The position numbers and the translations under genes were made by a program. A DNA stretch of 38,555 bases from Candidatus Egerieousia equi (lineage in GTDB: Bacteria; Bacteroidota; Bacteroidia; Bacteroidales; UBA932): NCBI GenBank assembly GCA_018065035.1, contig JAGHUC010000080.1:1-38555 (forward strand), read 5' to 3'. The stretch's first letter is position 1. Every line of letters begins with the position of its first letter. Below, one piece after another: positions 23,850 to 32,312 of the stretch. A model generated the notes under the pieces. That model did no database searches, had not been told where the DNA came from, and saw only the letters and a list, made by a program, of their open reading frames with translations.

Positions 23850-24524
23850 ATGAATACCATTACAATTTATCACGGTTCGCCAAGCATTGTGACTCCCGTT
23901 TTCGGCGAAGGGAAGACCTATAACGATTACGGGCGGGGATTCTATTGCACTGAAAATCTTGAGCTGGCCAAGGAATGGGCCTGCTCCCAGGACTCCGACG
24001 GGTATGCCAACCAGTATGTCCTGAACCTGGAGGGCCTGAACATCCTGTATCTGAACGAGCCCCGGTACAACATATTGAACTGGCTAGCCATCCTTCTCGA
24101 AAACAGAAGGTTCTCCGTTGCGGAAGGTCTTCCACAGGAAGCAAGGAAATACATTCTGGAAACCTTCCTGCCCGAATACAAGTCCTGTGACATCATCAAG
24201 GGATACCGTGCGGACGACTCCTATTTCTCGTATGCAAGGGACTTCATCAGCAACACACTGTCACTGCAGGACCTCAAGCAAGCCATGATGCTCGGGAAGC
24301 TTGGGGAGCAGGTCGTCCTGAAAAGCGAACGGGCCTTCGCAGCCCTCACGAAGGGCGAGATAATACCCGCGGACAGAAGTGAATATTACGCCAGATACTG
24401 CGAAAGGGACCGCATGGCCAGAGAGAATTACAGGAAGATCTCTTCGCATGCATTCTCTCAGGGCGAAATCTATGTCATTGATCTTATCAGAGGAGGGATA
24501 AAGGATGGAGACCCGCGCTTATAA
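23850..24524 (+). CDS. DUF3990 protein, putative ADP-ribosyltransferase-type toxin
   Basis: 224 residues. It begins TITIYHGSPSIVTPVFGEGK and continues YNDYGRGFYCTENLELAKEW, the DUF3990 pattern (YHGS..., DYGxGFYxT.D...A..WA). This resembles the His/Tyr region of the ADP-ribosyltransferase fold; a C-terminal LGEQVVLKSERAF may supply the third element. DUF3990 proteins are often paired with HTH proteins and are thought to be toxins, but no activity is shown for this subfamily as far as I know. The last 20 bases overlap the HTH gene. GC content is visibly higher than in the flanking intergenic DNA, consistent with acquisition. Confidence 0.8.
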   Translation: MNTITIYHGSPSIVTPVFGEGKTYNDYGRGFYCTENLELAKEWACSQDSDGYANQYVLNLEGLNILYLNEPRYNILNWLAILLENRRFSVAEGLPQEARKYILETFLPEYKSCDIIKGYRADDSYFSYARDFISNTLSLQDLKQAMMLGKLGEQVVLKSERAFAALTKGEIIPADRSEYYARYCERDRMARENYRKISSHAFSQGEIYVIDLIRGGIKDGDPRL

Positions 24525-25143
24525 TGAAGCATATCTTCCGTATGCCATGGAGAATCTTGCCGCGATGATGGATTGCGGCATAAACCAGTGCGGTTTTCCT
24601 CCGCAGCTGTTTCATCGGATGTTCCTGACAAGCGGAATCGCCGGCCAGATGGAAAAGGGCAATCCGCGCTATGTCGCAGGGCTTTCAGGGGCGGAACTCG
24701 CCAGTCGTGTCATCGAACTCGCCGCCGGAAAGTCTCCCGTGGAAATTGACGGAACATTCACCATCTCTCCGGAATACTGGGCGGGATGGGTTCTGGCATA
24801 CTATCAGTGGAAATCCGGGAGATCCTTCCGCGCCATCAACGACAACGGCCTTCACCTGGAAAAGATCATCGCGCTGTACCATCCGCTGCATGAAGCGGAT
24901 CTTGACAAGTTCGCCGCCGTGGCTGACAGGATCATAGCGGAAACCGTCAACAAGTCCGTGAGCCCCTTGAAGAAAGCAAGGGAACAGTCCGGACTCACTC
25001 AGAAGGAGCTTTCCAGAATATCCGGAACATCCCTCAGAATGATTCGCGCTTATGAGCAGAAATCACAGGACATCGCAAAAGCAAACTTCGGAACAGTCTC
25101 AAGGCTGGAGTCTGTCCTGCACGTTGACTTCAGTCAAATATGA
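24505..25143 (+). CDS. HTH (XRE) protein, putative antitoxin for the DUF3990 gene
   Basis: 212 residues. The C-terminal 60 residues form an XRE-type helix-turn-helix (LKKAREQSGLTQKELSRISG, then SLRMIRAYEQKSQDIAKAN and a final short segment). The N-terminal 150 residues contain a helical domain I do not recognise, with AYLPYAMENLAAMMDCGIN and SPEYWAGWVLAYYQWKSGRSF; similar domains accompany HTH regions in TA operons. It overlaps the toxin gene by 20 bases (translational coupling), and a terminator follows. It probably binds the toxin and the palindrome upstream of it (inference). Confidence 0.78.
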   Translation: METRAYNEAYLPYAMENLAAMMDCGINQCGFPPQLFHRMFLTSGIAGQMEKGNPRYVAGLSGAELASRVIELAAGKSPVEIDGTFTISPEYWAGWVLAYYQWKSGRSFRAINDNGLHLEKIIALYHPLHEADLDKFAAVADRIIAETVNKSVSPLKKAREQSGLTQKELSRISGTSLRMIRAYEQKSQDIAKANFGTVSRLESVLHVDFSQI

Positions 25144-25370: not shown

Positions 25371-25386
25371 TGGCACGCTATTTGCA
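25371..25386 (+). promoter_or_regulatory. Sigma-54 promoter, peptide unit A
   Basis: TGGCACGCTATTTGCA fits the RpoN -24/-12 consensus TGGCACG-N4-TTGCA at every defined position, with the standard 10 bases between GG and GC. The peptide ATG is 60 bases downstream. Confidence 0.85.
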
Positions 25387-25445
25387 GATGTTTTCATGAC
25401 CCGGCAAGGGGACTGACAGTACAATGACAATAAATATTAGACACT

Positions 25446-25610
25446 ATGGAAAAGAAATCAAGGAAAGAATTCAAAGATCTGAGCGAAGAGCAGCTGCAGG
25501 AAGTAACTGGAGGGGGAAAGATACACCAAATAATGATCTGTGTAACATCAGTTACAGATAACCCCTGTCCGGGCAAGAGATTGGACTCGCAGTGCCATTG
25601 CATCGACTAG
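25446..25610 (+). CDS. Double-glycine leader Cys-rich peptide A
   Basis: 54 residues. The leader MEKKSRKEFKDLSEEQLQEV ends at TGG (residues 21-23), followed by a 31-residue core with four cysteines spaced C-x8-C-x8-C-x-C and a short tail (CHCID). The leader shares K/F...LSxEELxxVxGG with seven other peptides nearby. Such leaders are normally cut after GG by peptidase-containing ABC exporters, and the four Cys may form two disulfides or be modified (inference). It is monocistronic: sigma-54 promoter upstream, strong terminator 23 bases downstream. The gene is below common annotation length limits. Confidence 0.82.
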   Translation: MEKKSRKEFKDLSEEQLQEVTGGGKIHQIMICVTSVTDNPCPGKRLDSQCHCID

Positions 25611-25632
25611 TTCTTCATCCGCCCTTACCCGA

Positions 25633-25656
25633 GCTCTCCTTCAGGAGGGCTTTTTT
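25633..25656 (+). terminator. Terminator of peptide unit A
   Basis: GCTCTCC (25633-25639), loop TTCA, GGAGGGC (25644-25650), then six T. Confidence 0.85.
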
Positions 25657-25663
25657 AATGCAA

Positions 25664-25689
25664 GCAGGCACCCCCGGAGGGATGCCTGC
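25664..25689. terminator. Hairpin between convergent peptide units A and C
   Basis: GCAGGCA (25664-25670) and TGCCTGC (25683-25689) with additional CCC/GGG pairing inside. There is no good T run on either side, so it may help end the leftward five-peptide unit. The stretch 25690-25847 shows nothing else. Confidence 0.4.
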
Positions 25690-25847
25690 GTTCATGAAAT
25701 AAAGAAATCGAAACAAAAGTTTCAATTCAAACAATTCAGTGCAAAGATAGTCATTTTTCCTGGTCCCGCATTCCCGGTGAAGATTTGACATAATATCCAA
25801 TATGTCAAACCCTGCTCTGCATGGTGTACCGGCGTGGGTGAGAATCA

Positions 25848-26015
25848 CTATAGTACATCTACAGAACACGTACAGTTAGCTTGCGTCCACGTCCCGCCTG
25901 CTAACTTACAGTCAGCACGTGTATCTGTATAGCAATGTACTCCCCCGTTGACCTTTTCAAGTTCCTCCTCCGAGAGTTCCCTGAACTTCTTTTCTTTGGC
26001 ATCTTGTTTTTTCAT
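25848..26015 (-). CDS. Double-glycine leader Cys-rich peptide C5
   Basis: 55 residues from the preferred ATG at 26013-26015; the frame extends upstream to 26045, but the shorter form starts MKKQDAKEKKF like its siblings. The leader ends ELSEEELEKVNGG. The 30-residue core has cysteines spaced C-x7-C-x11-C-x-C, exactly as in peptide B, and both have a GG pair after the second Cys and end in CSV plus an acidic residue. It is last in the leftward five-gene unit C. Confidence 0.82.
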   Translation of the reverse strand: MKKQDAKEKKFRELSEEELEKVNGGVHCYTDTRADCKLAGGTWTQANCTCSVDVL

Positions 26016-26054
26016 ATTCTCAAAGCATTGATTTAAGTTAGTCATTCAACTATT

Positions 26055-26252
26055 TCATCTGCCACTTGTATTAGGCTTTGGCTCGCACTGGCAGTTATTA
26101 TTTTGGTTCTTATACATTCCTGGTTCACATGGATTTCTAAAGTCATCGCACACTATTCTAACTAATGGCGGCCTTCCTCCCCCGTTTACTTGTTCGAGCT
26201 CCTCATCTGAGAGCTGCCTGAATTTCTTTTCCTGTGGTTCTTGTGATTTCAT
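26055..26252 (-). CDS. Double-glycine leader Cys-rich peptide C4
   Basis: 65 residues from the ATG at 26250-26252 (MKSQEPQEKKF, as in C2 and C3); a longer frame to 26282 is less family-like. Leader QLSDEELEQVNGG. The 40-residue core starts basic/Pro-rich (GRPPLVRI), with C-x6-C-x11-C-x-C and the tail EPKPNTSGR. The CQC-x-PKPNT ending is shared with C1 and C2. Confidence 0.83.
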   Translation of the reverse strand: MKSQEPQEKKFRQLSDEELEQVNGGGRPPLVRIVCDDFRNPCEPGMYKNQNNNCQCEPKPNTSGR

Positions 26253-26322
26253 GTCTGTCAAAGTTATTTGTTGAACTTTCATTTGGTTGTGATTCAGAGC
26301 TCAAGTGAACTTATTTCCGTGT

Positions 26323-26532
26323 CTATCTAAACCCCCCGTTCGGCAACTGTTGTCCATTCTCGATGCACTGGTCGCTTGCGTTCTTCATCTTGCACAGCTC
26401 GATGTCAGTGAATTGTTTGCCGGGAGCAACGACTATAACAGGCCACACCTTCCCCCCTCCCGTCACTTTTTCGAGCTCCTCGTCAGATAGTTGCTTGAGC
26501 TGTTTCTTTTCTTTAGGTTCTTGTGATTTCAT
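26323..26532 (-). CDS. Double-glycine leader peptide C3 (divergent core)
   Basis: 69 residues from the ATG at 26530-26532; the frame is open to 26553, just after the C2 stop. The bases before the chosen ATG (ACTTTGAGGAT) match those before C2. Leader QLSDEELEKVTGG. The core has only two cysteines (C-x8-C) and lacks the C-terminal Cys-x-Cys and PKPNT tail; instead it has a hydrophobic VWPVIVVAP stretch and ends NGGFR. It may be a functional partner or a drifting paralogue. Confidence 0.8.
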   Translation of the reverse strand: MKSQEPKEKKQLKQLSDEELEKVTGGGKVWPVIVVAPGKQFTDIELCKMKNASDQCIENGQQLPNGGFR

Positions 26533-26553
26533 ATCCTCAAAGTATAAAATCAA

Positions 26554-26769
26554 TTATTTCATTTTTTCTCTAGCTATGGTGTTAGGCTTTGGCACGCACT
26601 GGCATTTGCCATCAACGTACGTATATATCTCCCCGACTGGGCAACCATCAATAGAAAATAGGCAAACATGATTAGAATGTCCGTCTAAAAACATTCCCCC
26701 ATTGACTTTTTCGAGCTCCTCATCAGAGAGCTGCCTGAATTTCTTTTCCTGTGGTTCTTGTGATTTCAT
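26554..26769 (-). CDS. Double-glycine leader Cys-rich peptide C2
   Basis: 71 residues. Leader MKSQEPQEKKFRQLSDEELE then KVNGG. The 46-residue core has C-x6-C-x12-C-x-C and the CQCVPKPNT motif, with a basic extension IAREKMK after it. Second gene of the leftward unit, 33 bases after C1. Its leader is nearly identical to those of C3 and C4, indicating recent duplication. Confidence 0.84.
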   Translation of the reverse strand: MKSQEPQEKKFRQLSDEELEKVNGGMFLDGHSNHVCLFSIDGCPVGEIYTYVDGKCQCVPKPNTIAREKMK

Positions 26770-26802
26770 ATCCTCAGAGTATTAACTTATGTCAATTATT
26801 CT

Positions 26803-26988
26803 TTATCTATATGTATTAGGCTTTGGCACGCACTGGCAGTTATTCAATGCGTCCGGCATCATTCCTGGTCCACATGGATTTGTGAAGACCTCACCGCACG
26901 CTTTTATCGCAATTGGTGTCCCTCCCGTCACCTTTTCGAGCTCCTGGTCTGAGAGTTCTGTGAATTGTTTTTTAGATTTCTCTTTCAT
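26803..26988 (-). CDS. Double-glycine leader Cys-rich peptide C1
   Basis: 61 residues. Leader MKEKSKKQFTELSDQELEKV then TGG. The 38-residue core has C-x7-C-x11-C-x-C with the FTNPCGPGM pattern (compare FRNPCEPGM in C4) and the CQCVPKPNTYR ending. First gene of the five-peptide unit; its 5' region including the sigma-54 promoter is a near copy of that of peptide B. Confidence 0.84.
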   Translation of the reverse strand: MKEKSKKQFTELSDQELEKVTGGTPIAIKACGEVFTNPCGPGMMPDALNNCQCVPKPNTYR

Positions 26989-27088
26989 GATGATATAGAT
27001 TAAAAGTTGGTATTATCAAAAATCAGGGACAAAAGTAATCAAAAGATCCCCATGGATTAAGACTAAGCAAGAATTGTGCCAGACTGCA
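26986..27088 (-). repeat. About 100-bp promoter/leader repeat, copy 1 (unit C)
   Basis: The region from the peptide C1 start codon through its sigma-54 promoter resembles 27324-27429. Shared blocks include TTAAAAGTT, CAGGG-x-CAAAAGTAAT, TCCCCATGGA and GTGCCAGACTGCA. Both copies also hold TACTTTTG, a -7-like box, between the sigma-54 site and the ATG. Confidence 0.75.
27066..27081 (-). promoter_or_regulatory. Sigma-54 promoter, peptide unit C
   Basis: Minus-strand TGGCACAATTCTTGCT matches TGGCACR-N4-TTGCW fully with correct GG-GC spacing. It lies 78 bases upstream of the peptide C1 ATG and 20 bases downstream of the unit B terminator. Confidence 0.85.
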
Positions 27089-27100
27089 GGACGCATCTGA

Positions 27101-27135
27101 AAAAGAGAAAGCCACGGCTCTCATGAGGCCATGGC
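27101..27135 (-). terminator. Terminator of peptide unit B
   Basis: Minus strand: GCCATGGC ... GCCGTGGC stem (27135-27128 with 27118-27111; one G-T pair) followed by a pyrimidine/T-rich tail. Together with flanks it is an inverted near-copy of the terminator at 32409-32444. Confidence 0.75.
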
Positions 27136-27170
27136 AATCGTCAAATTCCGAATGTCGCACATTGTCAACA

Positions 27171-27326
27171 TTAGTCTACACTTACGGAGCATTTGCACTC
27201 GTGTGGGATAATTATTCCGCCTCTTCGATTACAATCTTCCAAATCGTATGTGAAGCATGGAGCCCCCCCGTTTACATTCTCGAGTTCTTCCTCTGAGAGC
27301 TCTTTGAATTCTTTCTTTGATTTCAT
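27171..27326 (-). CDS. Double-glycine leader Cys-rich peptide B
   Basis: 51 residues. Leader MKSKKEFKELSEEELENVNG, G. The 30-residue core has cysteines C-x7-C-x11-C-x-C, identical in spacing to C5, with CNRRGG and the CKCSVSVD end. It is a single-gene unit with its own sigma-54 promoter 80 bases upstream and terminator 36 bases downstream. Recognised by translating the gap by eye; too short for usual gene callers. Confidence 0.82.
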   Translation of the reverse strand: MKSKKEFKELSEEELENVNGGAPCFTYDLEDCNRRGGIIIPHECKCSVSVD

Positions 27327-27429
27327 GATGTTATAAATTAAAAGTTAGTTTTCTATCAGCAAACAGGGGCAAAAGTAATTAAACTTTCCCCATGGAAAAA
27401 GGATGAGCAAAAAGTGTGCCAGACTGCAA
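27324..27429 (-). repeat. About 100-bp promoter/leader repeat, copy 2 (unit B)
   Basis: Near-copy of 26986-27088 covering the start codon, 5' UTR and sigma-54 promoter of peptide B. It ends directly at the stop of the serine recombinase gene. Confidence 0.75.
27406..27421 (-). promoter_or_regulatory. Sigma-54 promoter, peptide unit B
   Basis: Minus-strand TGGCACACTTTTTGCT, a full match to the -24/-12 consensus. It lies 80 bases upstream of the peptide B ATG and 15 bases beyond the recombinase stop. Confidence 0.85.
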
Positions 27430-27436
27430 TTCACAC

Positions 27437-28066
27437 TCACATCGCCTTCTTCACCTTCAGGACGGTGAACGCCGATACCCCGCATGCGGCGGCCGTGTCC
27501 CTTACGGAGAGGCCCTTTCTGAGCCTTCTGACCACGTCGGGATATTTCTGCAGCAATTGCTCGTCCGACATCCCCGAACCAAAGGGACGGCCCATTCTGA
27601 CTCCCCTGGCAATCGCGAGCTGCCTTCCGCTGTTCAGTCTGCTGACTATGTTCCTCCTCTCTATCTCGGCGCCGAGGCCAAGGACCGTGAGCAGCATCTT
27701 CGCCACCGGGTTCTCCGTTCCATCCGGGAGCATAGTGTCTATGTTAAGGTCCAGGATGTGAATGTTGATGCCGGCCTTGGTGAGATCGTCAGTCACGTCG
27801 AGAATCTTCCGGACGCTGCGGCCCAGGCGCGAGAGCTCGGAGAGCAGCAGGGTGTCCGCCTCCCCTTTTCTGAGGAATGCCAGGCATTCGGCCAGCACCT
27901 CCCTGTCGTCCTTCGCTCCTGATGCTTTCTCCTCATAGACTCTCACCACCTGCATTCCTGATGCGGCCGCATGGCTCCGCAGGTCGGCCACCTGCCTTTC
28001 AGTGTCCTGCCTGTCGCCTGTGGATGATACGCGGGCGTATATGACTGCTCTACTGCTTTTCTTCAT
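27437..28066 (-). CDS. Small serine recombinase (resolvase/invertase family)
   Basis: 209 residues. The resolvase domain starts AVIYARVSSTGDRQDTERQ with catalytic Ser14, followed by Arg-containing LLLSELSRLGRSVRKIL (about residues 93-109), a long E helix (VAKMLLTVLGLGAEIERRNI) and GVRMGRPFG leading into an HTH (LSVRDTAAACGVSAFTVLKV). The size and layout match resolvases/invertases, not large integrases. GC content is markedly higher than in neighbours, a sign of transfer. The small four-Cys gene upstream overlaps its start by 17 bases. It may resolve a mobile element or invert DNA; which sites it uses is unknown. Confidence 0.93.
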   Translation of the reverse strand: MKKSSRAVIYARVSSTGDRQDTERQVADLRSHAAASGMQVVRVYEEKASGAKDDREVLAECLAFLRKGEADTLLLSELSRLGRSVRKILDVTDDLTKAGINIHILDLNIDTMLPDGTENPVAKMLLTVLGLGAEIERRNIVSRLNSGRQLAIARGVRMGRPFGSGMSDEQLLQKYPDVVRRLRKGLSVRDTAAACGVSAFTVLKVKKAM

Positions 28067-28205
28067 GGCTCCGGCTTTTCAAGGTTTCTTTTATGCGGGG
28101 GCAGTACTCCTTCTCCCTGAAGGGGAAAGGGCAGGTTCCGGCATTGAACCTGGGGCATCCCGTGCAGGACCGCTCAAGTATTTCTTCCGTTACTCCCATG
28201 CTCAT
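28050..28205 (-). CDS. Small four-cysteine protein overlapping the recombinase
   Basis: 51 residues, MSMGVTEEILERSCTGCPRF and onward, with C-x2-C-x7-C-x9-C at residues 14, 17, 25 and 35, a likely metal-binding (Zn) knuckle, and a basic C-terminus. The ATG at 28203-28205 or 28197-28199 could be used. Its last 17 bases overlap the recombinase start (ATGA-like coupling), so the two are one operon with a promoter at 28231-28260. It could be an accessory DNA-binding or regulatory protein of the recombinase; the family was not recognised. Confidence 0.6.
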   Translation of the reverse strand: MSMGVTEEILERSCTGCPRFNAGTCPFPFREKEYCPRIKETLKSRSHEEKQ

Positions 28206-28230
28206 AATAATTCTTTGATTAATCGCACTA

Positions 28231-28308
28231 CAAAAATAGCGAATTCTATCCGTGCTACAAGGGGTAATAACAGATTTATTTCAATACAGGATTTATTCCA
28301 GCACGGAT
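28231..28308 (-). promoter_or_regulatory. Promoter and spaced inverted repeat upstream of the recombinase operon
   Basis: Minus-strand TTG at 28260-28258 and TATTTTTG at 28238-28231 form a Bacteroidetes promoter. ATCCGTGCT (28248-28256) and AGCACGGAT (28300-28308) are perfect 9-bp inverted arms 43 bases apart that bracket the -33 region, suiting a resolvase subsite pair or autoregulatory site. The rest of the gap to 28461 holds only a possible 30-codon remnant (28359-28449, minus; LKAPNLLQLISLENE-like) with no start. Confidence 0.5.
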
Positions 28309-28461
28309 TCCTCGGGCTGTAACTTAGTTATACGTATATCATGTCTTTTTGAATCTGCTCAATGAAACCCGGAAGAAATTTCATTTTCCAGGCTGATGAG
28401 CTGCAGCAGATTCGGGGCTTTGAGCTTCACGGCAATGTCAATAGCTGCATCTCAATGAGAG

Positions 28462-29808
28462 TTACAACATTGGAGTCATATATACCGGTAGCATAACAAT
28501 GGATCCATCCTTCTTCAGGTCCTTGGTATATACGAGATATTGTGAACCTATACGGCTGGCAAACTTCTTAATGAATGCATCCAGAGATGCGTGGGTCTTG
28601 TAACCAGAGGATTTGACTTCCAGCGGGCAAATCTTTGAACCTTTTGAGAGAAGAAAATCTATTTCATAATTGTGCTTTCCGCTCTCGGTTGGCCAGGTAT
28701 GATAAAACAATTTGTGACCTGCTGCCTTCAGCATCTGTGCAACGATGTTTTCATACACATACCCCAAATCTGCCGGAAGTTTGTTACTGAGAAGTTTCCT
28801 GTAAAGAATGTTGTCCGAAACCTCATTATCCCAAAAGGCAAGTGTAATGAAAAGCCCCGTATCACCTACAAACATCTTATACCGGGACATATCGGCGTGA
28901 AGAGAAAGCCCTACGGAAGGGTCGTTTGCGTGATATGAAAAGTTCACAGCCATACTGTCTTCCATATCCTGTATGATCTCTTTCATCTCTTTCTCGTCCT
29001 GACTTCTGCCCAACACGGATGTTACCTGATATCTGGAAGCGTTGCCGGTAAGCTGTGACGGAGCTGCCATAAACATACGTGTTGCCCTGCCGGTAGGGTC
29101 GATTTTTCGGAAATCCTCTGCATAGAGATCAATTATTTCCCGCTTTACGGAATCCACCAATGAGATATTCAAGCTGTCAAGATAGGCACATACCGCCTGA
29201 GGCATACCTCCCACAAGCATATACAGGCGGAAGTCCTGCAACAGTTTGCGACACACAGCATCGCCTACGGCCAACCCGGACAGAAATGCTTCCTTTATAA
29301 GAGGAACGGTCGCAGTATCTCCCAAGGCCCACCGGAACTCCTCATAATCCATCGGAAACATATCAATACGACTTTCCTCACTTGGAATTACAATTCCTGC
29401 GGTGTTCTTTTTGATGGAAAGAAGAGACCCTGTCTCAATATAGTCATAACGATGATCTTTCACCAGATACTTGATTGCCTCCCTTACCTTGGGCGCTTTC
29501 TGAATCTCATCAAAAATGATCACCGACTTTCTCTCTTCCAGTTTGACACCATATATGAATTGCAGTTGCATAAAGAAGCGATCCCTGTTGGAGATGTTAT
29601 CAACGGCCTCCCACAACTCTTCGGAAGCTTCTGCAAAATCCACTTTTATATACGAGACATACTCCCTCCTGGCGAATTCCTCCGCAATGGTGGACTTGCC
29701 CACCCGCCTGGCACCTCTGATGAGCAAGGCAGTCTTTCCGTCTTTTTCGCTCTTCCAGCGCAGCATTCTCTCGTAGATTTTTCTTTTGAAAACTCGTTCC
29801 TGCTCCAT
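28462..29808 (-). CDS. AAA_14 / DUF4143 ATPase
   Basis: 448 residues. Walker A in LLIRGARRVGKSTIAEEF (near residue 30), Walker B VIIFDEIQKAPKVREAIKYL, sensor-type YIETGSLLSI, and a C-terminal DUF4143 domain with DVGLF-like GDTGLFITLAF, YENIVAQML, and a PD-(D/E)XK-like end (YEIDFLLSKGSKICPLEVKS). This family is very common and variable in Bacteroidetes; its role is not established, though the C-terminal nuclease-like fold suggests nucleic acid or mobile-element functions. A -33/-7 pair lies upstream. A decayed relative is found at 31205-31827. Confidence 0.92.
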   Translation of the reverse strand: MEQERVFKRKIYERMLRWKSEKDGKTALLIRGARRVGKSTIAEEFARREYVSYIKVDFAEASEELWEAVDNISNRDRFFMQLQFIYGVKLEERKSVIIFDEIQKAPKVREAIKYLVKDHRYDYIETGSLLSIKKNTAGIVIPSEESRIDMFPMDYEEFRWALGDTATVPLIKEAFLSGLAVGDAVCRKLLQDFRLYMLVGGMPQAVCAYLDSLNISLVDSVKREIIDLYAEDFRKIDPTGRATRMFMAAPSQLTGNASRYQVTSVLGRSQDEKEMKEIIQDMEDSMAVNFSYHANDPSVGLSLHADMSRYKMFVGDTGLFITLAFWDNEVSDNILYRKLLSNKLPADLGYVYENIVAQMLKAAGHKLFYHTWPTESGKHNYEIDFLLSKGSKICPLEVKSSGYKTHASLDAFIKKFASRIGSQYLVYTKDLKKDGSIVMLPVYMTPML

Positions 29809-29836
29809 TTCTCAAAATTTTATGGTTGTGTAAGGG

Positions 29837-29867
29837 CAAAATTAGCTGTTTTGTCGGATTCTCACAA
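29837..29867 (-). promoter_or_regulatory. Promoter of the AAA_14/DUF4143 gene
   Basis: Minus-strand TTG at 29867-29865 and TAATTTTG at 29844-29837, 23 bases start to start, match the Bacteroidetes -33/-7 pattern; the ATG is 28 bases downstream. Confidence 0.65.
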
Positions 29868-29967
29868 TTATCTTGTATAAATATGTATGGATTCTCTAAT
29901 TTTTGCATCATTGATTGTGCACTCTCTCACTATGTGTCACAACTGAATTGTATGAATTATAAAAAAA

Positions 29968-29990
29968 TCGGGAAGCTGTAGGGAAGTTGA
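29968..29990 (+). repeat. 23-bp direct repeat, right copy
   Basis: Matches 23451-23473 at 21 of 23 bases. Its continuation GTTGAACTCCGTAAA recurs with one change at 31926-31940. It lies between the ATPase and acyltransferase genes, whose gap otherwise holds only the ATPase promoter. Confidence 0.55.
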
Positions 29991-30001
29991 ACTCCGTAAA
30001 A

Positions 30002-31057
30002 TCATCGCCCACCGCACAAAACACTGAAAGTCTTTGGAAGATATCTGCGTAATAGAACTCCTGCGAGCGTACAGATAAGCAAATCTGCAACGAAAAGAGC
30101 CAGTGCGAAAAATATCATTCCAAATGTGCCGCTTACGTCAATGAAGCGTATCAGCAGCAGGCCGATAACGTATATTATCATATAGCCGTGCGAACAATAC
30201 AAAAACATTGAATGAGGCGCCATAGTCCGGACAAACGCATCTGCATTTCTGTTGGAAATGAGAATCCCCGAAAGCTTCAGCAGAAGGAAAAACGTTGGCA
30301 GATGGGCGGGAAAATGTGTTGTAATACCGCAGTACAGGCCTTCGGAATGGACATAGAAAACTGCGGCTATGCAGCCTGCTATCACCAGTGGCCAGGGAAT
30401 CCATTTGTCGGCGAGGCTGAAAAAATCCCATTCCCTGATTGTGCAGAGTCCTCCGAGCGAGTAAAAGAAAAGAGCATGAGGCGCTGTCAGAGGAGATATG
30501 ACAAAAACAAGAGCAAGCAGGCAAAGAGTCATATATATCCACGGAATCTTGTGCAAAAGCCAGTTGATCAGCGGCGATAGTATTGATAATATGAACAGGT
30601 CACGAATAAACCAGAACTGATACAGTAAAGGAACCCCTACGGACCCGGAAAGCATTCCGGAATAGTCTCCGAATATTCCTTTAAGCCAATCAAGAGGGTT
30701 GCTGCTTTCAAGAAAAGCGAACTGAAGGATCCTCCCAGTCCACTTCTTAAGGGCAAGATACTCGAGACACGCAACTGCTGTCCAGATGAGCATAGGCAAC
30801 ATCAACCCCTCGAGTTTCTTCAATACGGTATCCTTGTAATTGCGAGGCTTTGCAAACTGCAAGTAGCCGGATATGATAAAAAAGACGGGCACAATTCCGA
30901 TTCCCAGTCCATAGACAACGGTCATATACACCCACCCGAATGCGGGCTCAAAACAGAAGTCGGCTAAAGAGGCTTGAAAATAGGGCCATTGTACCGCATG
31001 CTGCATCAAAACAAGCACGATACATAGCCATCGGAGCGATGTTATCCGTTCAGACAT
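30002..31057 (-). CDS. Membrane-bound acyltransferase 3 family protein
   Basis: About 351 residues with about ten membrane helices (PF01757 type). The N-terminal pattern ITSLRWLCIVLVLMQHAVQW places the family's conserved His in the first helix; VPVFFIISGYL matches the F.F.SG.. motif. Such proteins move acetyl or other acyl groups onto cell-surface sugars. The ATG at 31057 (MSERITSLRW) is preferred over 31072 because a TAATTTTG -7 box at 31085-31078 would place the transcript start at about the first ATG. No glycan genes are adjacent, so the target is unknown. Confidence 0.88.
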   Translation of the reverse strand: MSERITSLRWLCIVLVLMQHAVQWPYFQASLADFCFEPAFGWVYMTVVYGLGIGIVPVFFIISGYLQFAKPRNYKDTVLKKLEGLMLPMLIWTAVACLEYLALKKWTGRILQFAFLESSNPLDWLKGIFGDYSGMLSGSVGVPLLYQFWFIRDLFILSILSPLINWLLHKIPWIYMTLCLLALVFVISPLTAPHALFFYSLGGLCTIREWDFFSLADKWIPWPLVIAGCIAAVFYVHSEGLYCGITTHFPAHLPTFFLLLKLSGILISNRNADAFVRTMAPHSMFLYCSHGYMIIYVIGLLLIRFIDVSGTFGMIFFALALFVADLLICTLAGVLLRRYLPKTFSVLCGGR

Positions 31058-31103
31058 CTGATTACTTATCATAGTTGCAAAATTAACAAAAAACGGGGTT
31101 TAA

Positions 31104-31133
31104 TTTTTACTTGCCGAATTAGGCAAGTAAAAA
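31104..31133. terminator. Perfect inverted repeat upstream of the acyltransferase
   Basis: TTTTTACTTGCC (31104-31115) / GGCAAGTAAAAA (31122-31133), a 12-bp stem with a six-base loop, ending in A/T runs on both sides. It could be a bidirectional terminator or an operator over the -33 region. Confidence 0.45.
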
Positions 31134-31204
31134 CAAAACTTTAACTGTTTTGGAAAAAGCGGACAAAAACACTACATTTTTATTAGAAAAAACGGACAAA
31201 TATT

Positions 31205-31827
31205 ATGCTGACAAGAAAATTGGACTCATTCCTGGACTCTTTTTATGAGAGTGAACATAGTAAGGCCTTGTTACTGACAGGCGCGAGACAGCTACCGTTA
31301 TGCATTGTCTGGTTCGTTACTTGGAGTGGAACTGAAAGACCTCCGCTCGGAGCCTGTCGGTTATATGGATGTGGAAGGCTGGTGTTGCCATACCCGCTTT
31401 CAATGTTACGAAACCTGTGCCACCATTGTTGCTGAACAAACAGAGAAACCTTTTCAAGCTGTTCCAGAATGATGTCGGTTTGCTGGCTTATCAGTATTCA
31501 AACGGAATCCAGATGGAGATTCTCAAAGGGAATGTCAACGTGAATTATGGCGCCGTATACGAGAACTTTGTGGCTCAGGAACTGATTTCTAAAGGTTATC
31601 CGACATATTATTTCAACAATAAGAAGCTTGGTGAGCTCGATAATGTGATGGGTGTCCCCAACTACAACATTAAACAGGCAATTGTTCTCTGCAACGAGAA
31701 CTTGACGGAGGAAGGTCGCGTGCTCAATATGCCTATTTATATGATAATGTTTTTCAAGAAGTCAGAGTCTTCAATCGGGCAGTTTACGATTGATGTTCAT
31801 CCGTCTGCACTGATAAATCAGAAATAG
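31205..31827 (+). pseudogene. Decayed AAA_14/DUF4143 ATPase
   Basis: The N-terminus is a recognisable ATPase start (MLTRKLDSFLDSFYESEHSK, then ALLLTGARQ), but the Walker A is lost at LTGARQ and the frame changes. The middle ATPase domain is missing. The C-terminal DUF4143 part resumes in another frame (NDVGLLAYQYS, VYENFVAQELISKGYPTYYF), and the nuclease-like segment between LGELDNV and the end is deleted. So there is at least one frameshift and two deletions. It is a relic of a gene related to the intact ATPase at 28462-29808, though from a different subgroup. Confidence 0.8.
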
Positions 31828-31910
31828 TAAAGATCCTAACTCTATTCGGTCCACGAGATGCTGTTACAACCGCATGTGGTTTTCAACCTCAGATTAAATT
31901 TCGGTTAGCC

Positions 31911-31941
31911 TGAAAAAATTGTGGAGCTGAACTCCGTAAAT
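31911..31941 (+). repeat. Partial third copy of the accessory-region repeat
   Basis: The sequence from the A-run through GTGGAGCTGAACTCCGTAAA resembles 29961-30000 with an internal deletion. The stretch 31828-32138 otherwise holds a CTGCCGGCAG palindrome (32024-32033) and the sigma-54 promoter of unit D. Confidence 0.4.
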
Positions 31942-32045
31942 GTTCAATATTTCAATTCAATATGACTGATTTTTGCCATAATATTTAGAATACAAAAGTA
32001 CCAAATAACATTTACACAACCCCCTGCCGGCAGTGAACTTCAGTC

Positions 32046-32061
32046 TGGCACACTTTTTGTA
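32046..32061 (+). promoter_or_regulatory. Sigma-54-like promoter, peptide unit D
   Basis: TGGCACACTTTTTGTA has the -24 box and spacing of the other three, but the -12 element is TTGT instead of TTGC, so it may be weaker. It is 78 bases upstream of the peptide D ATG. The flanks (CAGTCTGGCACACTTTTTG) match unit B almost exactly. Confidence 0.7.
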
Positions 32062-32138
32062 CATAACTCAATGACGGAGATTCTGATTAAATTAGTCCGG
32101 CGGAAAATGATTGTATTTCAATTTAAATTATAAACATT

Positions 32139-32312
32139 ATGAAACAGAAAAAACAACTGAGAGAACTCTCTGAAGACGATCTTGAGCAGGTACACGGTGG
32201 CTTGGATCCCTACTGTAAGGCAAAAGACGCAGAGGGAAAGTGCGTTGAAACACCGACATTAGAAACCCCGAAAGGCCTGATTGATCCAGGCGGTCATTCA
32301 CCCGCTTTTTAA
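32139..32312 (+). CDS. Double-glycine leader peptide D (two-Cys core)
   Basis: 57 residues. Leader MKQKKQLRELSEDDLEQVHG, G. The 36-residue core has two cysteines (C-x8-C) and a Pro/Thr/Gly-rich tail ending PGGHSPAF; it lacks Cys-x-Cys, like C3. It is a single-gene unit lying 4.8 kb from the others and on the plus strand, with a sigma-54-like promoter and two terminators. Below normal gene-calling length; the assignment rests on leader and promoter similarity. Confidence 0.75.
   Translation: MKQKKQLRELSEDDLEQVHGGLDPYCKAKDAEGKCVETPTLETPKGLIDPGGHSPAF

What the first reader, a model, noticed from the sequence alone, without database searches (positions are those of the whole stretch)
25371..32312. 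Family of eight double-glycine leader, cysteine-rich peptides under sigma-54 control
Eight short genes (A at 25446; C5-C1 at 25848-26988; B at 27171-27326; D at 32139) share a leader of 21-25 residues around LSDEELEKVNGG and have short, mostly four-Cys cores. They occupy four transcription units on both strands, each with a -24/-12 promoter and, for A, B and D, its own terminator. Double-glycine leaders are the known cleavage site of peptidase-containing ABC exporters (bacteriocins, pheromones, RiPPs), so secretion and a signalling or antagonism role are plausible. RpoN control of such a peptide set is not something I know to be described. No exporter, maturase, immunity gene or sigma-54 activator is in the window.
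Basis: partly seen in the sequence, partly recalled or inferred. Interest (0 to 1): 0.9.

Follow-up and report, generated by a model that had tools for sequence, protein, structure and literature searches.

The report
Sigma-54-driven double-glycine secreted peptide family
A gut-type Bacteroidales bacterium carries sixteen small, fast-diverging, cysteine-paired peptides that look built for export, and all of them sit behind one rare type of stress-linked genetic switch (sigma-54) that has not, to my knowledge, been linked to such peptides before.

Summary
The eight ORFs are real: seven pass the curated double-glycine signature model, leaders are under purifying selection, and all four window promoters match TGGCAC-N5-TTG[CT]. 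The family is larger than reported: 16 peptides at three loci (window 8, contig C106 6, contig C69 2) in 8 transcription units, and all 8 have the site. The genome has 11 exact sites (2 for the reversed control); 6 serve these units. That activator lacks a DNA-binding domain, as do its orthologues in all 12 genus members checked. The likeliest exporter is an unlinked NHLM-type operon on contig C124 (C39-ABC, second ABC, HlyD, TolC) with a VKOR-thioredoxin oxidase; a horse-gut MAG has the same operon with a same-leader peptide immediately downstream. Every peptide has 2 or 4 cysteines. Best reading: leader-cleaved, disulfide-bonded, bacteriocin-like peptides, switched on together by sigma-54. 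It works like bacteroidetocins but fails their defining gene neighbourhood and leader length. New variant of a known kind. Antagonism versus signalling is unresolved; no expression or secretion data exist.

The parts
25371..25385 (+). sigma-54 (-24/-12) promoter of gene A, TGGCACGCTATTTGC
   Evidence: exact match to TGGCACN5TTGC, 75 bp before the ATG
25446..25610 (+). peptide A, 23-aa leader + 31-aa core, 4 Cys
   Evidence: ORF; TIGR01847 16.2 bits over cut-off; paralogue on C106, leader dN 0.04 / core dN 0.50
25631..25652 (+). terminator of A
   Evidence: 9-bp stem + T run
25848..26015 (-). peptide C5, 25-aa leader + 30-aa core, 4 Cys (last gene of the C operon)
26055..26252 (-). peptide C2, 25-aa leader + 40-aa core, 4 Cys
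26323..26532 (-). peptide C3, 26-aa leader + 43-aa core, 2 Cys; core shared with a C106 member that bears another leader
26554..26769 (-). peptide C4, 25-aa leader + 46-aa core, 4 Cys
26803..26988 (-). peptide C1, 23-aa leader + 38-aa core, 4 Cys (first gene of the C operon)
27067..27081 (-). sigma-54 promoter of the C operon, TGGCACAATTCTTGC
   Evidence: exact match, 93 bp before the ATG
27107..27122 (-). terminator of B
   Evidence: stem + T run
27171..27326 (-). peptide B, 21-aa leader + 30-aa core, 4 Cys
   Evidence: TIGR01847 21.6 bits, TIGR03949 24.6 bits, both over cut-off
27407..27421 (-). sigma-54 promoter of B, TGGCACACTTTTTGC
   Evidence: exact match, 95 bp before the ATG
32046..32060 (+). 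sigma-54 promoter of D, TGGCACACTTTTTGT
   Evidence: one mismatch, 93 bp before the ATG; 9/10 score
32139..32312 (+). peptide D, 21-aa leader + 36-aa core, 2 Cys
   Evidence: ORF; family HMM E=3e-12 in own genome
32409..32433 (+). terminator of D
   Evidence: 10-bp stem + T run

Best explanation
This is a lineage-specific array of at least 16 secreted peptides. (1) RNA polymerase with sigma-54 waits at eight near-identical -24/-12 promoters. The one sigma-54 activator found in the genome, an NtrC-type response regulator without a DNA-binding domain and probably driven by the large histidine kinase encoded two genes upstream, fires them together from solution. (2) The shared leader ..ELS(D/E)EELEKVxGG delivers all precursors to one C39-peptidase exporter, most likely the NHLM-type dual-ABC/HlyD/TolC operon on contig C124, which cuts after GG during transport. 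(3) The VKOR-thioredoxin protein of that operon oxidises the paired cysteines, giving one- or two-disulfide peptides of about 21-50 residues. (4) The peptides most likely act outside the cell against competing Bacteroidales, as class II bacteriocin-like agents. Their cores diverge and are swapped between leaders while the leader is held constant. Shown by sequence: the family, the promoter motif, the leader conservation, the activator's anatomy, and the exporter operon with its linkage in a second genome. Inferred: transcription, kinase-activator pairing, cleavage, secretion, disulfides and the antagonistic role.
For: Family: 16 members at 3 loci. Double-glycine signature over curated cut-off in 7 of 8 window genes. 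Leaders conserved (dN 0.02-0.04 against dS 0.26-0.38 in the close pairs) and cores fast (dN 0.50 for A against its paralogue). Sigma-54: all 8 units have TGGCACN5TTG[CT] 56-163 bp before the ATG; 9/10 or better in 12/2000 simulated upstreams; 11 exact sites genome-wide against 2 for the reversed pattern, 6 of the 11 at these units. DNA upstream of the sites is mostly unrelated between units (15-55% ungapped identity, most pairs 20-35%), so the motif is the common part. rpoN present; a single strong activator, without HTH in G000 and in 12/12 genus orthologues. Exporter: C39 + ABC2 + NHLM HlyD + TolC + VKOR/Trx. In horse-gut MAG L128 (exporter 72% identical) a peptide with leader LRELSEEELKNVTGG lies immediately downstream of the same operon. 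This type of VKOR protein and the peptides are both confined to G000 among 393 order genomes. All 16 cores have an even Cys number.
Against: No expression, secretion or activity data. In G000 the exporter is unlinked to the peptides and lacks a sigma-54 site, so co-regulation of peptide and exporter is not shown. Two other C39 transporters exist and could be the exporter. In L128 the linked peptide has no sigma-54 site, so sigma-54 control may be confined to this lineage. No immunity gene was recognised. One C106 member has lost GG (EG), one member (C106 xf) has a different Cys spacing, and the AlphaFold model of C1 is unconfident (pLDDT 66). B, C and C106b also have a housekeeping-like TAnnTTTG or TTTTG box.
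Confidence: 0.6

Rival explanations
1. Secreted signalling peptides (pheromones): the same sigma-54 and C39 route, but the peptides report stress or kin identity to neighbouring cells rather than kill them.
For: Leader matches the ComC-type double-glycine leader; C1 is over the PF03047 cut-off. A single global activator would release many peptides at once. No immunity gene was recognised. The C124 exporter operon has a SpoIIE-domain response regulator and a two-component-propeller kinase next to it.
Against: Sixteen divergent cores with leader-core swaps is unusual for a pheromone, and no receptor was identified. Lack of an immunity gene is also normal for bacteroidetocins, whose producers are sensitive to their own toxin (PMC8546649).
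Confidence: 0.2
2. Exported through another C39 transporter (contig C68 beside a radical-SAM maturase, or contig C39), possibly after enzymatic modification, that is, a RiPP.
For: Both transporters are intact. The C68 cluster has a radical SAM/SPASM enzyme and a double-glycine precursor. Weak sub-threshold TIGR04149 matches for some window peptides.
Against: The C68 cluster has its own precursor, with a different leader and no sigma-54 site. No window peptide passes TIGR04149. Only the C124-type operon is linked to this leader in another genome.
Confidence: 0.15
3. The -24/-12 sites are not the working promoters; a housekeeping -33/-7 promoter drives the genes.
For: TACTTTTG boxes of the TAnnTTTG type lie about 44 nt downstream of the start of the site in B, C and C106b (sequences; scores).
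Against: Best housekeeping-type scores of the eight upstreams (7-9 of 10) are within the simulated range, whereas the sigma-54 scores (9-10 of 10) are not. The boxes occur only in one sequence-related group.
Confidence: 0.08
4. Decaying gene family: relics with little current function.
For: One GG-to-EG member on C106; patchy distribution.
Against: Strong purifying selection on leaders, even Cys counts in 16/16, promoters intact in 8/8 units.
Confidence: 0.05

Closest known systems
Bacteroidetocins (Coyne et al. 2019, PMC6671954; BamA target, PMC8546649)
   Same: Bacteroidales; small double-glycine precursors with short cores, mostly four (at least two) Cys forming disulfides; C39-peptidase ABC exporter and a thiol-oxidising partner; no immunity gene evident
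   Different: Bacteroidetocin leaders are 15-16 aa, here 21-26; there the genes sit beside exporter, TM protein and thiol oxidoreductase, here the exporter is on another contig; different exporter type (dual ABC with VKOR-Trx); many paralogous cores per genome; sigma-54 promoters
NHLP/NHLM three-gene export cassette with double-glycine precursors (cyanobacteria, PMC3140520; TIGR03796/03797/03794)
   Same: C39-ABC + second ABC + HlyD; several precursors with one leader type per exporter
   Different: Precursors lack the long NHLP or Nif11 leader (TIGR03793 is far below cut-off); Bacteroidales; VKOR-Trx partner; exporter below the strict NCBIfam cut-offs; sigma-54 promoters
Sigma-54 regulon of Bacteroidota (GroESL, IbpA, GrpE, DnaK/J; PMC12316311)
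   Same: Same promoter motif, also seen here upstream of groES/groEL and hsp20 in genus relatives
   Different: Secreted double-glycine peptides are not listed among its targets in the passages found
FlgR- and CtcC-type activators without a DNA-binding domain (own knowledge)
   Same: NtrC-type activator ending after the AAA+ lid, acting on sigma-54 promoters without enhancer sites
   Different: Here proposed to drive secreted peptides and, in relatives, stress genes

Membership tests
Double-glycine-leader peptides exported by C39 peptidase ABC transporters | Leader with LSxEELxxVxGG-type signature | tested here: met
   TIGR01847 over cut-off in 7 of 8 window genes
Double-glycine-leader peptides exported by C39 peptidase ABC transporters | C39-peptidase ABC transporter in the genome | tested here: met
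   Three intact; best candidate on C124
Double-glycine-leader peptides exported by C39 peptidase ABC transporters | Cleavage after GG and secretion | not testable with these tools
   Needs mass spectrometry
Bacteroidetocins | 15-16 aa leader | tested here: not met
   21-26 aa, against PMC6671954
Bacteroidetocins | Adjacent TM protein, ABC transporter/peptidase and mostly thiol oxidoreductase | tested here: not met
   None near the window genes and no C39 match on C119, C106 or C69; exporter on another contig
Bacteroidetocins | 35-50 aa core with at least two Cys | tested here: inconclusive
   All window cores have 2 or 4 Cys, but lengths are 30-46 aa: A, B and C5 are shorter than 35
Bacteroidetocins | Sequence similarity to bacteroidetocins A/B and killing of Bacteroidales | not tested
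   Reference sequences are only in figures; activity needs the bench
NHLP/Nif11 precursors (TIGR03793) | Long nitrile-hydratase-like leader | tested here: not met
   B 12.3 bits against cut-off 50.9
NHLM export system | C39-ABC1 (TIGR03796), ABC2 (TIGR03797), HlyD (TIGR03794) | tested here: inconclusive
   Best matches are exactly these three in operon order, but each is below the strict cut-off (833/853, 620/709, 128/156 bits)
Radical-SAM RiPP precursors (TIGR04149) | Model score over cut-off and adjacent maturase | tested here: not met
   At most 13.4 bits against 25; no maturase in the window
Sigma-54 regulon | -24/-12 element GG-N10-GC near TGGCACN5TTGC | tested here: met
   8 of 8 units
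Sigma-54 regulon | RpoN and an enhancer-binding activator in the genome | tested here: met
Sigma-54 regulon | Loss of transcription without RpoN | not testable with these tools
   Needs mutants

The most novel reading that the evidence does not exclude
A stress-gated peptide arsenal: one sigma-54 activator without a DNA-binding domain, shared with the chaperone regulon, releases a whole set of disulfide-bonded exported peptides at once, and the set evolves by swapping cores between constant leaders and copying the promoter-leader unit to new loci. It would couple envelope or heat stress directly to chemical warfare or signalling in Bacteroidales.
Probability: 0.35. Interest if true: 0.8.

Novelty: new variant of a known kind. 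Interest (0 to 1): 0.62.

Why it matters
If true, it gives sigma-54 a new kind of target, exported double-glycine peptides, and shows a whole bacteriocin-like repertoire under one global switch with no peptide-specific regulator. It also names an exporter with its own disulfide-forming partner, in a group said to lack general disulfide machinery (PMC6671954), and gives sixteen short cores that can be synthesised and tested at once. The activator has no DNA-binding domain, so the promoter motif alone should predict the regulon, which makes the claim easy to test.

Tried and rejected
Scan of genome contigs with the peptide alignment: pattern hits but no confirmed relative. Viral contigs, plasmids and phages: no relatives of the peptides. 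Family- and order-wide peptide searches: no strong match outside G000; weak hits (24.8 bits or less) lack a sigma-54 site. Sigma-54 sites of genus relatives mark chaperone genes and a short RNA-like transcript, not double-glycine peptides. The second NHLM-like operon on C56 lacks an intact C39 domain, so it was not preferred as exporter. AlphaFold of C1: pLDDT 66, pTM 0.29, not interpreted. Considered and rejected as families of membership: class IIb bacteriocins, ComC pheromones and radical-SAM RiPPs (only single members pass TIGR03949 or PF03047).

Full report
What was checked. The window is contig C119 of a 1.92-Mb, 150-contig genome (95.7% complete) held as G000. All eight ORFs exist at the stated places. 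Seven of them pass the curated cut-off of the double-glycine signature model TIGR01847; B also passes TIGR03949 and C1 the ComC family PF03047. D is below threshold in these libraries but is found with E = 3e-12 by the family model in its own genome.

The family is twice as large as reported. A profile of the eight finds sixteen members at three loci: eight in the window, six on C106 and two on C69. The invariant leader positions fit the canonical LSxEELxxVxGG pattern. Leaders are conserved at the protein level (dN 0.02-0.04 against dS 0.26-0.38 in the close pairs A/C106c, C1/C106b and C2/C4), whereas cores diverge far faster (core dN 0.50 for A against its C106 paralogue). One C106 gene joins a C1-type leader to the C3 core, so leaders and cores are exchanged near the GG junction. 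All sixteen cores have two or four cysteines, and nine have the spacing C-x6-8-C-x8-12-C-x-C. One C106 member has EG in place of GG.

Sigma-54 control. The sixteen genes form eight apparent transcription units, and each has TGGCACN5TTG[CT] 56 to 163 bp before its first ATG. A match of 9 of 10 or better turned up in 12 of 2000 simulated upstream regions. The whole genome has 11 exact sites, against 2 for the reversed pattern, and 6 of the 11 are at these units. Some units are duplicates, so I count at least five different promoter contexts; the DNA just upstream of the site is mostly unrelated between units. Negative controls (the C124 exporter operon, the radical-SAM double-glycine precursor on C68, the other C39 transporters, rpoN and the kinase) have no such site. 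Housekeeping-type -33/-7 scores of the eight upstreams do not exceed simulation.

The regulators. rpoN is present. One protein has a strong sigma-54 interaction domain (245 bits; the next is 29). It is an NtrC-type response regulator of 386 residues that ends after the AAA+ lid, with no helix-turn-helix and none in the following DNA. Orthologues in all 12 sampled genus members are 70-75% identical and end at about the same place. Those relatives have further activators in longer open frames; G000 does not, though about 4% of its genome may be missing. By analogy with FlgR and CtcC (own knowledge) such an activator works from solution, which fits the lack of conserved enhancer DNA. A 1214-residue histidine kinase lies two genes upstream. 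In genus relatives the same promoter motif lies before groES/groEL and hsp20, matching the published Bacteroidota sigma-54 regulon (PMC12316311).

The exporter. Of three C39-peptidase transporters, the C124 operon is the best candidate. It holds a C39-like/VKOR/thioredoxin protein, HlyD, C39-ABC, a second ABC, a further 283-residue lipoprotein-like protein (taken by position as an adaptor) and TolC, closest to the NHLM three-gene cassette but below its strict cut-offs. The VKOR protein keeps its CxxC, loop Cys pair and thioredoxin CxxC; the C39-like nature of its N-terminus is my reading of the sequence, not a model match. In a horse-feces Bacteroidales MAG the same operon (C39-ABC 72% identical) is immediately followed by a peptide with leader LRELSEEELKNVTGG. 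In a sample of 393 order genomes both the strong VKOR match and the strong peptide match occur only in G000. No other member of the genus sample has an exporter close to this one. That is a link by co-occurrence and by neighbourhood in one genome, not proof.

Mechanism and role. Shown by sequence: the family, its promoters, leader constancy, the activator's anatomy, and the exporter operon with its linkage elsewhere. Inferred: joint transcription under sigma-54, cleavage after GG, disulfide formation and release. For the role I prefer antagonism (about 0.5 on its own; 0.6 is for the statement as a whole, with the route weighted more heavily than the role), because of the many fast-diverging, disulfide-type cores and the resemblance to bacteroidetocins, whose producers are sensitive to their own toxin so that a missing immunity gene is no objection (PMC8546649). 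Signalling is the main rival.

Comparison. Bacteroidetocins are the closest known agents, but leader length (15-16 against 21-26 residues) and the required neighbouring genes were tested and not met, so this is not filed as a bacteroidetocin. It belongs to the wide class of double-glycine peptides exported by C39 transporters, as a new variant: multi-locus, core-swapping, under one sigma-54 switch, with an unlinked exporter. Open-licence literature searches found no report of sigma-54-controlled double-glycine peptides; that is absence from one library only.

Limits. There are no expression or protein data, the assembly is fragmented, and only one lineage has the sigma-54 link so far. The simulated null is a first-order Markov model, and paralogous promoters are not independent. 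The exporter assignment rests on one second genome.

Noticed in passing
L048:1541-1650, L043:46-160; relatives L087, L089, L097, L104, L105, L106, L107, L111: An exact sigma-54 site is followed within about 20 nt by TTTTTTCATAGGTTAATTTTTAGGTTAA and a hairpin with T run, with no ORF: looks like a conserved short sigma-54-driven RNA, in several cases just before rpsP. No Rfam match in the loci scanned.
   Followed up: partly
L088, L094, L096, L098, L099, L102, L103 (groES/groEL); L091, L093 (hsp20): TGGCACN5TTGC upstream of chaperone genes in genus relatives, consistent with a sigma-54 heat-shock regulon.
   Followed up: partly
L045:8573 (minus strand): An exact sigma-54 site 90 bp before an S41-type peptidase followed by two proteins like the DUF4932 proteins of C68; that family also flanks the radical-SAM cluster on C68 (L041:8742-12893).
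   Followed up: no
L041:5186-13252: Radical-SAM/SPASM maturase cluster with C39-ABC, HlyD, two DUF4932-type proteins and a Cys-rich double-glycine precursor of 82 aa that matches no Pfam or NCBIfam model.
   Followed up: partly
window 27437-28066: Small serine recombinase (PF00239) between peptide genes B and D; a possible agent of the rearrangements.
   Followed up: partly
window 23850-25143: DUF3990 gene overlapping an HTH gene, matching candidate defence models PDC-M42A: possibly a toxin-antitoxin or defence pair beside two tRNA genes.
   Followed up: partly
window 31369-31827: Truncated remnant of a DUF4143/PDC-S01-type ATPase, near an intact copy at 28462-29808.
   Followed up: no
L124:3160-9552: A second NHLM-like exporter operon on C56 whose first ABC protein lacks the C39 domain.
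   Followed up: no
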